From the NCBI RefSeq assembly GCF_002214605.1, contig NZ_CP015193.1, positions 1,654,978-1,718,977 of the forward strand: a stretch of 64,000 nt of DNA, read 5' to 3'. The notes below the pieces were generated by a model. It searched no databases and was not told where the DNA came from. It saw only the letters and a list, made by a program, of their open reading frames with translations. Of this stretch, positions 17,964 through 21,528 are shown piece after piece. This DNA is from Thermococcus chitonophagus (GTDB lineage Archaea; Methanobacteriota_B; Thermococci; Thermococcales; Thermococcaceae). Position 1 is the first letter of the stretch. Every line of letters begins with the position of its first letter. Position numbers and translations under genes: made by a program.

Positions 17964-18458
17964 ATGAAAAAGTTCAAGAAAGTCGTCGTTGGTGGGACGT
18001 TTGACAGGCTACATCTCGGCCACAAGGCCCTATTAAGGAAGGCCTTTGAAGTAGGCGAGATAGTTTACGTTGGGTTAACCTCAGACGAAATGGTTAAAGA
18101 AAAACCATACGCCGAGAAAATCCTCCCCTACGAGAGAAGGCTCAAGGATCTTTTAATGTTTTTTGAAGTTAACGGCTTTAAGAACTACAGGATAATCAAG
18201 ATACACAACGCAATAGGCTTCACGACAAAGATAAAGAGCCTCGAGGCCATTGTCGTAAGTGAGGAGACATATAAAGGGGCCCTTCTCGTGAACAGGGCAA
18301 GGGAGGAACTGGGCCTTAAACCATTGGAGATAGTTGTGATACCTCTAGTCAAGAGCAAACTTGGCGGGAAGATAAGCTCCTCACTGATAAGAGCAGGGCT
18401 TATTGATCCATTTGGCAACCCAATCGGTAAAAAGCAGAGAAAAGAAAAGAGACTCTAG
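17964..18458 (+). CDS. coaD: Phosphopantetheine adenylyltransferase (archaeal PPAT)
   Basis: A 164-aa nucleotidyltransferase of CoA biosynthesis (4'-phosphopantetheine + ATP to dephospho-CoA). Signature GGTFDRLHLGHKALL near the N-terminus contains the HxGH-type ATP site, and KISSSLIR near the C-terminus is the ISSTxxR-like motif. The length fits the archaeal enzyme. Start chosen at ATG 17964; GTG 17961 is directly before it. No clear ribosome binding site beyond GTGATG. Convergent with the MFS gene, stops overlapping by 4 bp. Confidence 0.92.
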   Translation: MKKFKKVVVGGTFDRLHLGHKALLRKAFEVGEIVYVGLTSDEMVKEKPYAEKILPYERRLKDLLMFFEVNGFKNYRIIKIHNAIGFTTKIKSLEAIVVSEETYKGALLVNRAREELGLKPLEIVVIPLVKSKLGGKISSSLIRAGLIDPFGNPIGKKQRKEKRL

Positions 18459-19660
18459 TTTCCTGATAAATGCTTCAGTTCCAGAGGCTCTTTAAGTATG
18501 CCAAGTACCTGAGCTCCCTTAAATGCCAACCCAACTGCAAAGAGCGCTAGAGCAAACATCAACCTTGCCTCCGCTAAACCAATTCTATTAACAGCAAATC
18601 CATAGATCCCATAGAAAAATGCCATTACCAACGCAGAAACCATAGAATATAATGAAATTATAGTAGCCCTCTTTTCGCTAGGTATCCTCGTTTGTAACTC
18701 AATGCCAAAGTTAAATGAAAAGGCGGTGTTAATTATCGTCGCTATAGTCCCAAGTACTACGATGAAGATTGGATTCCTGTAAATCACTGACAACGCCGTG
18801 AGTATGGGAATGCTTACGGGAGCTATTGAATACGCAAATGCACTCCATTTCTCTTTCAGCCTTACGCCAACTAACCTCGGGATAGCTTTGACTAATGCCT
18901 CAACAAGGCCCAAAATACCCAAAGTCCCCATTATCGTTGTTTTAAGATTTTGAGCTAGGATATTACCTAGATAAGGCTCAAAGTATTGTCGAAATTGATT
19001 AATCGACATTGCTACTGTTATTGCCACGACAATTAACCAGAATATGTTTGGCTTCATTAGTTCCTTAAGTGAGTGTAGAACGTGAATATGGTATGCGACC
19101 TTGGGTTTTTTGAACTCATACTCAGGGATACTAATGGCCACTATGATCATCATGATTTCAAGTATCAGTTTTAAAATCAATGGAAGTCTAAAACCATAGT
19201 ATTGAGCTAAAAAGCTTCCAATTACAACCGTTACTGCGGATAAGGGCAGAGTTATAGTCTTTATGTCTTTCATTAGTTTTCTGTACTCTCTCTCCCTACC
19301 CAAGTACTTAAGATTATCATACAACCACGCTTGAAGACTTCCACTGATAAAAGTCACGCTAATTGATGTTATTACTGAATACGCTATTAGCATTGGGAAG
19401 TTCTTTAGGAACAGAAGAATTATAGTCCCCATTGGGAAAAGTGCAAGGCCTATGAGCACACTTTTCTTTCGACTCACTTTGTCTCCGATGACACCCGTTG
19501 GGACCTCAAAGAGGAAGAAACCAATTGTTGAGATAGCAGTTGCTATTCCTATTTGGGCATAAGTTAAACCTTTTGCAAGATAGTAAATAACTATTATTCC
19601 ACCAAGAAAGTTCACATTCATTAGGGCATAAAATAATTTGTATTTCTTTGTTATCTCCAT
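18455..19660 (-). CDS. MFS transporter, putative RiPP exporter
   Basis: A 401-aa protein with 11-12 membrane helices. The MFS loop motif appears as GFFLFEVPTGVIGDKVSRKKSVLIG (after helix 2), with the acidic D and basic RKK of motif A. A strong AGAGGAGGTTT ribosome binding site precedes the ATG. It is the last gene of a minus-strand cluster: radical SAM maturase, 37-aa peptide, then this transporter after 68 bp. Export of the modified peptide or self-immunity is inferred from this context only; drug-efflux MFS proteins look similar. Confidence 0.88.
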   Translation of the reverse strand: MEITKKYKLFYALMNVNFLGGIIVIYYLAKGLTYAQIGIATAISTIGFFLFEVPTGVIGDKVSRKKSVLIGLALFPMGTIILLFLKNFPMLIAYSVITSISVTFISGSLQAWLYDNLKYLGREREYRKLMKDIKTITLPLSAVTVVIGSFLAQYYGFRLPLILKLILEIMMIIVAISIPEYEFKKPKVAYHIHVLHSLKELMKPNIFWLIVVAITVAMSINQFRQYFEPYLGNILAQNLKTTIMGTLGILGLVEALVKAIPRLVGVRLKEKWSAFAYSIAPVSIPILTALSVIYRNPIFIVVLGTIATIINTAFSFNFGIELQTRIPSEKRATIISLYSMVSALVMAFFYGIYGFAVNRIGLAEARLMFALALFAVGLAFKGAQVLGILKEPLELKHLSGN

Positions 19661-19684
19661 TTTTAAACCTCCTCTTTGAGAGAT

Positions 19685-19701
19685 TTAAAAATGTAAAAAA
19701 A
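19685..19701 (-). terminator. T-rich termination signal after the peptide gene
   Basis: On the minus strand the stop of the 37-aa peptide is followed within ~30-45 bp by two T runs (ctatttttttac and cattttt). Archaeal RNA polymerase terminates at T-tracts of this kind. Partial termination here would make the peptide more abundant than the downstream transporter, as is usual in RiPP operons. Inference from sequence only. Confidence 0.4.
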
Positions 19702-19728
19702 TAGATAAAAGATCAAAGATTTTGAACC

Positions 19729-19842
19729 CTACCAGAGACTCCTATCTGGAATTTCTATAATTTTTTCGCAAAGTATGTCTCCTATCGAGTCACATAGGTA
19801 AAGTTTTCTAATCTTTGGGACACACTTTGTCAAGGCCCTCAT
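19729..19842 (-). CDS. Candidate RiPP precursor peptide (37 aa)
   Basis: A short ORF placed exactly between the radical SAM/SPASM gene (42 bp upstream) and the MFS gene (68 bp downstream), all on the minus strand. It begins MRALTKCVPKIRKLYLC and ends EIPDRSLW with the stop at 19729-19731. Features: three cysteines at 7, 17 and 25; a basic N-terminal part (K6, K10, R12, K13) that could act as leader; a central SIGDIL segment (19-24) between C17 and C25; and a terminal tryptophan. The ribosome binding site is very strong (GGGGGGTGAGGAA before ATG), stronger than that of the enzyme gene. A TATA-like ttataaaaa lies ~20 bp upstream. The Cys spacing would suit thioether (sactipeptide/ranthipeptide) or other radical crosslinks; the modification itself is not predictable. 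Confidence 0.75.
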   Translation of the reverse strand: MRALTKCVPKIRKLYLCDSIGDILCEKIIEIPDRSLW

Positions 19843-19884
19843 TTCCTCACCCCCCAAGTTTTTTATAATCGAGGTAAGTAGGAT

Positions 19885-21330
19885 TCAGCGTGTTTTTGAG
19901 AGAGTGCGGGATAAAACAACTTGAGTACGAGATACTCTGCTAATATCTGTTCTCTTTTGAAGATACTCTTCAAACTTGTCACTATACTCATCATAAAGCT
20001 TTGAGTATAACCAGAGTCCAATTTTAAACTTTTCTTTTGCATAATAACATGATAGGGTTTGTGGGATAGTTATCTTGCCTGTGTAGATTATGTTATCATA
20101 ATAGCAGAAATTATGACAATAAAACTTAAGCCAACAGGATTTACACGGTTCATGATTGAATGGCGTATATTTTTGCCCTTCAAATTTTAATAAATCTTTT
20201 AAAGAAAATGAATCTACATTACCAAGTTTAAAATTCTTAAAGGACACAAACCTTTGACATGGGTAAATATCTCCTTCCACATCTATTGCTATGCTACCAA
20301 ATCCTGCACCACAATGTTGAGCTTTAATTTTTCCACTATAAATATCCGTAAGTTGCAGTACAAAATCTCCGAAGAGAATCCTATTCAGCTCCCCAAATGT
20401 CCTTACTTCGTCAATGGCGATTTTTCGGAGCTCTTTTAAATACATATCTACATGTTTCTTACTCATAGCTCCATTAGAGAGTGTAGCAAAGCCTATTGCT
20501 ATTATTGGCGGATTAAACTCCTTTTTTATGTGTTTATAGACTCTATAAGCCTCTTTAACTTGGTCGGGCATGAGAGTGGCTTTTATAGATATTCCCCTAA
20601 ATCTACCAAGCTCTTTAGCCCTTTTTAAAGTGTATTTGATGTTGCTTGCCACAACATCATAAGTTGGGCTACCGTCCGCTAAAGGTCTGTTTTTGTTGTG
20701 TAGTTCTCTATACCCATCGAGGCTTATGTTTATGTCAAAATTATTTTCTAATAGAAAATCAGCAATCTCCGGGGTTAATAGATAACCATTTGTAGTTATT
20801 GTAAAGACAACGTCTTTATTAAGAATATTAGCCCTCCTTTTGGCATATTTAACAACTTCCTTTATTGTCTCGAAATTTAACAAAGGCTCCCCACCAAAAA
20901 ATGTGATTATCGTGACCTTATTGCTTTTTTGAAGTAATAAATCAACACTTTTCTTTGCAATTTCAAAGTTCATGAGTTTTGGTTTATAATTCCCATAAAG
21001 CCCCCTATCCGCATAGCAATAAATACAGGAAAAGTTACATGCCTGAGAAATATTAAGGCTCCCGCCCAGAATGTACAAAGGGAGCTCAATATCATCAGTT
21101 AGCTGAAGTGGGGGCAACTCATTTATATACCGAAAAAGTTCGTTAAGTTTAATTTTTTCTTCTTCAGTTAACTTGTTATTTTTCTCCTCCTTAAGCTTCT
21201 TTAGGATATCATATATTCCCTCATCTATTTCAAGAATATAACCAGACGAATCATGAATGATAAAATATTTTTTAATATTATTAATCTCGGTTCTTAGAGC
21301 TATAATGTCCAAAATTTTAATGGGCTCCAT
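19885..21330 (-). CDS. Radical SAM/SPASM peptide-modifying enzyme
   Basis: A 481-aa protein in three parts. Residues ~1-80 form a small N-terminal domain (FIIHDSSGYILEIDEGIYDI) like those preceding peptide maturases and possibly an RRE-type leader-binding region. The radical SAM domain follows with CNFSCIYC (C98, C102, C105), a GGEPLLN motif (146-152) and SLDGYRELHNKNR (203-215). The SPASM domain has C340 (CGAG), C358 (IYPCQRF), C396, C399, C405, C409 and C428, sufficient for two auxiliary [4Fe-4S] clusters. This is the layout of enzymes that install thioether or C-C crosslinks in ribosomal peptides, or of anaerobic sulfatase maturases; no sulfatase is nearby, but a 37-aa Cys peptide is. AT content is higher than that of flanking genes, which may indicate transfer. 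Confidence 0.92.
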   Translation of the reverse strand: MEPIKILDIIALRTEINNIKKYFIIHDSSGYILEIDEGIYDILKKLKEEKNNKLTEEEKIKLNELFRYINELPPLQLTDDIELPLYILGGSLNISQACNFSCIYCYADRGLYGNYKPKLMNFEIAKKSVDLLLQKSNKVTIITFFGGEPLLNFETIKEVVKYAKRRANILNKDVVFTITTNGYLLTPEIADFLLENNFDINISLDGYRELHNKNRPLADGSPTYDVVASNIKYTLKRAKELGRFRGISIKATLMPDQVKEAYRVYKHIKKEFNPPIIAIGFATLSNGAMSKKHVDMYLKELRKIAIDEVRTFGELNRILFGDFVLQLTDIYSGKIKAQHCGAGFGSIAIDVEGDIYPCQRFVSFKNFKLGNVDSFSLKDLLKFEGQKYTPFNHEPCKSCWLKFYCHNFCYYDNIIYTGKITIPQTLSCYYAKEKFKIGLWLYSKLYDEYSDKFEEYLQKRTDISRVSRTQVVLSRTLSKTR

Positions 21331-21342
21331 AGTTTCATCTAC

Positions 21343-21475
21343 CTACTATCGTTACTCTTGTAATTATGTATTTTTAAGTTTTTTTATATAATTCTTGTCA
21401 TTAGTATAATAATTATCGATGAATTATTAATAGTTCTTTGAGTATAATCTTAGTAATTCAATCATACGATAGTAG
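21343..21475. promoter_or_regulatory. Inverted 10-bp repeats flanking a divergent promoter region
   Basis: CTACTATCGT at 21343-21352 recurs as its reverse complement ACGATAGTAG at 21466-21475, about 113 bp apart. They lie at the two edges of a very AT-rich stretch between the radical SAM gene (minus) and the oxidoreductase gene (plus). The left copy sits 12 bp upstream of the radical SAM start. Two sites of opposite orientation could bind a regulator that loops the region; they could also mark insertion boundaries of the RiPP cassette. Confidence 0.45.
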
Positions 21476-21528
21476 ATGGTAGTAGGAGAATTAAAAAGAC
21501 CTGACAAAATTTAAATCAGGTGATCCCG

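What the first reader, a model, noticed from the sequence alone, without database searches (positions are those of the whole stretch)
18455..21330. Undescribed-looking RiPP cassette: radical SAM/SPASM maturase, 37-aa Cys peptide, MFS transporter
Seen: three minus-strand genes in 2.9 kb; the 37-codon ORF (19729-19842) lies exactly between a SPASM enzyme with all auxiliary Cys and an MFS gene. It has the strongest ribosome binding site of the cluster and a T-rich terminator after it. The peptide has C7, C17, C25, a basic N-terminal part and a terminal Trp. Known: SPASM enzymes make thioether or C-C links in such peptides, and exporters sit beside them. Inferred: an archaeal hyperthermophile RiPP, perhaps a bacteriocin or signal. 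AT-richness and flanking inverted repeats suggest a transferred cassette.
Basis: partly seen in the sequence, partly recalled or inferred. Interest (0 to 1): 0.92.

Follow-up and report, generated by a model that had tools for sequence, protein, structure and literature searches.

The report
Archaeal modified-peptide cassette with transporter
A heat-loving archaeon carries a small, horizontally moving three-gene unit that makes a tiny cysteine peptide, very probably cross-links it with a radical enzyme and exports it, and several related archaea keep only the exporter, as if to resist the peptide.

Summary
The 37-codon ORF is a real, conserved gene. Seven further loci carry relatives of the cassette: five other Thermococcaceae genomes and one Thermococcus nautili plasmid with the full set, and one deletion remnant. 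They yield 12 peptide copies (10 of them with a normal start codon), always between a maturase (51-75% identical) and an MFS gene (61-81%). The frame is under purifying selection (pS 0.97, pN 0.24). The maturase has all three rSAM and seven SPASM cysteines, an RRE-like N-terminus, and CteB as nearest solved fold, but passes no NCBIfam cutoff. Cys is followed by Asp/Glu at +5; a sister Thermococcaceae clade has +3/+4. This points to Cys-Asp/Glu thioethers (ranthipeptide-like, CX4[DE] rather than PapB's CX3D). The cassette sits in a site that is empty in relatives, is AT-rich, and is plasmid-borne elsewhere. Close MFS copies stand alone in seven genomes and survive in an eighth where maturase and peptide were deleted, which suggests immunity/export. 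Chemistry and bioactivity are inferred only.

The parts
19885..21330 (-). radical SAM/SPASM peptide maturase (481 aa)
   Evidence: Pfam Radical_SAM 2.5e-21 and SPASM 8.9e-8; 10 cluster cysteines invariant in five orthologues; Foldseek best match CteB 5wgg/5why
21106..21330 (-). N-terminal RRE-like region (residues 1-75), presumed precursor-binding domain
   Evidence: AlphaFold2 model: strands 9-16, 19-26, 31-35 then helices 37-47 and 56-70, block pLDDT 77-88 over residues 1-70; the CteB match spans nearly the whole length
21016..21039 (-). rSAM [4Fe-4S] motif C98-X3-C102-X2-C105
   Evidence: alignments A3 and A4
20047..20313 (-). SPASM auxiliary-cluster cysteines C340, C358, C396, C399, C405, C409, C428
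   Evidence: invariant in A3
19729..19842 (-). precursor peptide MRALTKCVPKIRKLYLCDSIGDILCEKIIEIPDRSLW; conserved C17-x4-D22 and C25 followed by E26/E30
   Evidence: 12 copies over the window locus, five other genomes and one plasmid; purifying selection
19847..19855 (-). Shine-Dalgarno-like site of the peptide gene (GGGGGGTGA)
   Evidence: read; relatives have AAAGGAGGTGA at the same place
19686..19705 (-). T-rich stretch (14 T in 20), putative archaeal terminator between peptide and MFS genes
   Evidence: similar stretch at all six genome loci measured
18455..19660 (-). MFS drug-efflux-like transporter (401 aa), putative exporter/self-protection protein
   Evidence: Pfam MFS_1 2.7e-20; weak similarity to Tet(40); 61-81% identical at the cassette loci
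21369..21378 (-). TATA-like sequence CTTAAAAATA upstream of the maturase (putative operon promoter)
   Evidence: read by eye; not tested
18425..21486 (.). approximate extent of the DNA missing from the empty sites of relatives
   Evidence: homology to relatives stops near 18424 and resumes between about 21486 and 21529; flanking genes abut or nearly abut in G005 and G004

Best explanation
A mobile rSAM RiPP cassette. The precursor (30-37 aa) is recognised through its conserved N-terminus (MRALVKxKP) by the RRE-like N-terminal domain of the maturase. The maturase then links the two conserved Cys of the C-terminal part to acidic residues about five positions downstream (C17-D22; C25-E30 or a nearby Glu) by thioether bonds, losing 2 Da each. 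The product is exported by the MFS protein, which also protects the producer. Shown: conserved peptide, conserved maturase motifs, gene linkage, selection, mobility, and retention of the MFS gene alone. Inferred: thioether chemistry, export, antagonistic function.
For: Peptide-maturase-MFS order conserved in six genomes, mostly at unrelated sites, and on a plasmid. Peptide-profile hits below 1e-10 only in the six genomes with the full-length maturase gene. pS 0.97, pN 0.24. Up to four precursor copies per locus (G110). Maturase best matches the nif11-type, PapB, QhpD and SCIFF models and CteB in sequence and fold. Acidic residue at C+5 for 16 of 21 Cys, and at C+3 (46 of 97) or C+4 (40 of 96) for the sister clade's precursors; 0 of 2000 shuffles as high. 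PapB makes Cys-Asp/Glu thioethers in CX3D and tolerates other spacings (PMC9413430). Close MFS copies stand alone in seven further genomes, interspersed with cassette copies on the MFS tree; the T. nautili plasmid MFS groups with lone chromosomal copies on short branches. In G071 a deletion removed the SPASM domain and the peptide but left the MFS intact.
Against: No product, transcript or activity data. The second acceptor (E30) is exact in only about half of the copies. Shuffles ignore relatedness of the peptides. No leader protease is encoded in the cassette. The wider MFS subfamily occurs in 46 of 94 Thermococcaceae genomes, so it may have a separate general role and the immunity reading may be wrong.
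Confidence: 0.6

Rival explanations
1. RiPP cassette whose product is not an antagonist but a signal, metal carrier or peptide-derived cofactor exported by the MFS protein.
For: The cassette genes alone do not tell these roles apart; the MFS is of the small-molecule efflux type; precursors are very short.
Against: Lone MFS copies without maturase and peptide in seven genomes, and retention after deletion in G071, fit resistance better than signalling; no shared regulator or receptor gene was noticed beside the loci.
Confidence: 0.25
2. rSAM-modified peptide with chemistry other than Cys-Asp/Glu thioethers (for example an alpha-carbon sactionine or Thr-linked thioether, a C-C cyclophane at the W/Y/L next to C25, or epimerisation).
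For: SPASM sequence alone does not fix chemistry; CteB, the nearest solved relative, acts on a SCIFF peptide, whose links differ (own knowledge); W or Y precedes C25 in several copies.
Against: Invariant Asp at C+5 and the C+3/C+4 acidic pattern in the sister precursors; PapB and QhpD models among the best hits.
Confidence: 0.25
3. The MFS is an ordinary resident efflux pump next to which a maturase-peptide module happened to settle; only maturase and peptide form the system.
For: MFS subfamily in 46 of 94 genomes; DNA homology between G096 and four lone-MFS loci starts 4 nt upstream of the MFS start codon; the MFS tree does not separate cassette from lone copies.
Against: All intact cassettes, including the plasmid copy, carry an MFS of this one subfamily immediately downstream, mostly at unrelated sites.
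Confidence: 0.2
4. The 37-aa ORF is a chance ORF.
For: Short ORFs with a Shine-Dalgarno-like site occur by chance in the window (30 of 965 start sites).
Against: Conservation, selection and linkage.
Confidence: 0.01

Closest known systems
PapB/PapA ranthipeptide system (NCBIfam NF047865)
   Same: rSAM/SPASM maturase; Cys followed by Asp/Glu in the precursor; second-best NCBIfam match (E 3.7e-71)
   Different: 240 bits against a cutoff of 340; CX4D in place of CX3D; two conserved Cys in place of six links; archaeal; MFS partner
SCIFF maturases (TIGR03974; CteB, PDB 5wgg/5why)
   Same: nearest solved fold over nearly the whole length including the N-terminal region
   Different: 213 bits against a cutoff of 425; precursor is not a six-Cys SCIFF peptide
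QhpD/PeaB quinohemoprotein amine dehydrogenase maturase (TIGR03906)
   Same: about 32% identity over 80% of the protein; by general knowledge it makes Cys-Asp/Glu thioethers
   Different: 227 bits against a cutoff of 453; substrate there is an enzyme subunit, here a free small peptide
nif11-like peptide rSAM maturase (TIGR04064)
   Same: best NCBIfam E-value (8.3e-74)
   Different: 249 bits against a cutoff of 519; no Nif11 leader match in the peptide
Thermococcaceae FKKLN-type clusters found here (no NCBIfam or Pfam family above cutoff for the precursors tested)
   Same: neighbouring maturase clade (about 35% identity), Cys-acidic motif precursors
   Different: precursors with many CX2-3D motifs; ABC-type membrane genes in place of MFS

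Membership tests
rSAM/SPASM RiPP system | small precursor gene linked to the maturase and conserved with it | tested here: met
rSAM/SPASM RiPP system | CX3CX2C plus SPASM cysteines | tested here: met
rSAM/SPASM RiPP system | precursor recognition element (RRE) | tested here: inconclusive
   RRE-like beta-beta-beta-alpha-alpha N-terminus in the model; no dedicated RRE profile was run
rSAM/SPASM RiPP system | post-translationally modified product | not testable with these tools
   needs mass spectrometry
ranthipeptide (PapB type, NF047865) | maturase above the NCBIfam cutoff (340 bits) | tested here: not met
   240 bits
ranthipeptide (PapB type, NF047865) | CX3D/E motif in the precursor | tested here: not met
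   acidic residue at C+5, not C+4
ranthipeptide (PapB type, NF047865) | thioether to a beta or gamma carbon | not testable with these tools
   needs MS/MS or NMR
SCIFF (TIGR03974) | maturase above cutoff (425 bits) and a six-Cys precursor | tested here: not met
   213 bits; two conserved Cys
nif11-type RiPP (TIGR04064) | maturase above cutoff (518.7 bits) and a Nif11 leader | tested here: not met
   249 bits; no Pfam or NCBIfam hit for the peptide
QhpD/PeaB (TIGR03906) | maturase above cutoff (453 bits) | tested here: not met
   227 bits
archaeocin | inhibits related archaea | not testable with these tools
   indirect only: lone MFS genes

The most novel reading that the evidence does not exclude
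A plasmid- and transfer-borne peptide-antagonism system of hyperthermophilic archaea: short CX4[DE] thioether peptides made by a Thermococcaceae-specific maturase family, with the MFS exporter acting as an immunity gene that non-producers keep or acquire on its own.
Probability: 0.35. Interest if true: 0.78.

Novelty: new member of a known kind. Interest (0 to 1): 0.58.

Why it matters
No paper in the held library combines radical SAM, RiPP and Thermococcales. This family has a tractable size (one enzyme, one 31-37 aa substrate, one transporter), a clear residue-level prediction (C17-D22, C25-Glu, -2 Da each) and an ecological prediction (lone MFS copies give resistance). A maturase from a hyperthermophile could also be a robust peptide-stapling enzyme. 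It makes the question of whether Thermococcales fight with modified peptides directly testable.

Tried and rejected
Chance ORF: rejected by conservation, selection and linkage. C7 and terminal Trp as functional residues: rejected, not conserved. Flanking inverted repeats or a transposon: no such repeats found around the cassette. Viral carriage: one weak distant match in IMG/VR and only distant rSAM proteins below 60% identity in phage records. Occurrence outside Thermococcaceae: the genome-contig scan found only distant bacterial rSAM proteins besides one Thermococcaceae MAG, and the phylum search found full-length close members only in Thermococcaceae. MFS as a cassette-exclusive gene: rejected, many copies stand alone. 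Makarova et al. 2019 on archaeal antimicrobial peptides (PMC6509191) is not held, so an earlier mention of these loci cannot be excluded.

Full report
OBSERVATION. The three minus-strand genes lie at the stated coordinates. The window belongs to a 1.96-Mb single-contig genome. Its family is Thermococcaceae, because G110, a genome of the same family, holds a 33,977-base contig that matches the titled record JASGLT010000020.1. The maturase has Radical_SAM and SPASM domains, and its three rSAM and seven SPASM cysteines are invariant in five orthologues.

THE PEPTIDE IS REAL. Searching the 37-aa peptide alone against 94 Thermococcaceae genomes gave its best outside hits in G002 (2e-9), G110 (3.5e-4), G081 and G082 (about 0.01), and a weaker one in G096 (0.2). 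Each lies between an orthologous maturase (51-75% identical) and an orthologous MFS gene (61-81%). G002 and G096 hold two copies, G110 four. A profile of the peptides finds 11 copies below 1e-10, only in the six genomes with the full-length maturase gene; this search is partly circular because the profile was built from these peptides. An independent check is not circular: a relative of the peptide searched against 72,556 plasmids matches one place, on the 103-kb plasmid THER333_p of Thermococcus nautili 33-3 (NZ_OX281346.1), in an unannotated gap between 'radical SAM protein' and 'MFS transporter'. Nucleotide differences between the window peptide and G002b are mostly synonymous (pS 0.97, pN 0.24). 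The start at 19842 is supported by the conserved MRALV/MRVLT/MRAMV N-terminus.

MOTIF. Across copies: MRALVKxKP, variable stretch, C-x4-D-x2-C-E, then a further acidic residue. C17, D22 and C25 are invariant in the ten aligned copies and R2, L4 and E26 nearly so; the T. nautili copy also has CSRIGD and CE. C7 and the C-terminal W of the window peptide are not conserved. An acidic residue occurs at C+5 for 16 of 21 Cys (shuffled mean 3.2; 0 of 2000 shuffles). In the precursors of a neighbouring Thermococcaceae maturase clade (about 35% identity, FKKLN-type peptides) it occurs at C+3 (46 of 97) and C+4 (40 of 96), again 0 of 2000. Shuffles ignore relatedness, so these numbers show a pattern, not a probability.

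ENZYME. Best NCBIfam models are nif11-like, PapB, QhpD and SCIFF maturases, all below their curated cutoffs; I regard these as mostly thioether-forming types (PapB from PMC9413430; the others from general knowledge). The best solved relative is CteB by sequence and by fold (TM about 0.70 on the query) for an AlphaFold2 model of mean pLDDT 79. The N-terminus is a three-stranded sheet followed by helices, as in RREs. PapB links Cys to Asp/Glu in CX3D, tolerates altered spacing, and each link costs 2 Da (PMC9413430).

GENE ORDER AND EXPRESSION. A T-rich stretch follows the peptide gene(s) before the MFS gene at all six genome loci, which could raise precursor over transporter expression. A TATA-like sequence precedes the maturase. 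Both are sequence readings, not tests.

MOBILITY. In G005 and G004 the two flanking genes (a CTP_transf_like nucleotidyltransferase and an FAD-dependent oxidoreductase) abut or nearly abut; in G003 and G006 a roughly 1-kb gene, a likely M48-type peptidase, sits there instead; in G002 the cassette lies elsewhere. Cassette GC is 0.34-0.39 against 0.448 for the window. With the plasmid copy and the patchy distribution (6 of 94 genomes plus one remnant), horizontal movement is well supported. No flanking inverted repeats were found.

TRANSPORTER AND FUNCTION. The MFS subfamily occurs in 46 of 94 genomes. Seven genomes hold copies as close as cassette ones but lack maturase and peptide. On the MFS tree cassette and lone copies are interspersed, with at least four changes forced by well-supported branches. 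The T. nautili plasmid MFS groups with lone chromosomal copies of G069 and G105 on short branches. Against G096, four lone-MFS loci share DNA from 4 nt before the MFS start onward, but nothing upstream. In G071 a deletion removed the SPASM domain and the peptide but left the MFS intact; in G082 the maturase has an in-frame TGA. Loss of production with retention of the transporter is what immunity to an antagonistic peptide would look like. A general-purpose pump is the main alternative.

NOVELTY. Peptide and maturase belong to no NCBIfam family above cutoff, and the peptide to no Pfam family. Searches of the held papers found none combining radical SAM, RiPP and Thermococcales, or Thermococcus, SPASM and precursor peptide. 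A 2025 paper mentions archaeal rSAM RiPPs only in general. Makarova et al. 2019 could not be read. I rate it a new member of a known kind (rSAM RiPPs), with an unusual spacing motif and an interesting transporter ecology.

Noticed in passing
L031, L032, L089-L095: A neighbouring Thermococcaceae maturase clade (nine genomes) is followed by 42-67 aa peptides, mostly starting MFKKLN/MFRKL, dense in CX2-3D motifs, next to ABC-type membrane genes; no NCBIfam or Pfam family above cutoff for the precursors tested. Probably a richer ranthipeptide-like family than the finding itself.
   Followed up: partly
L033, L096-L098: A third maturase clade with a 48-50 aa peptide MEFEVVNPGDKTK...CPFPEDWECWWPEDICY beside a membrane protein gene.
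   Followed up: no
L027:7850-8090: Third and fourth precursor copies of G110 keep all motif residues but have ATA or AGG where the start codon is expected; decayed starts or unusual initiation.
   Followed up: no
L029 (G082) and L088 (G071): Broken maturases: in-frame TGA before the last SPASM Cys in G082; a roughly 665-nt deletion of SPASM domain and peptide in G071; MFS intact in both.
   Followed up: partly
L112, L113: At the window cassette's insertion site two related genomes carry a likely M48-type peptidase gene instead, suggesting a variable site.
   Followed up: partly
L139 (NZ_OX281346.1): 103-kb Thermococcus nautili plasmid carries the cassette; its first precursor copy is truncated (MRELVKTNQMRR).
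   Followed up: partly
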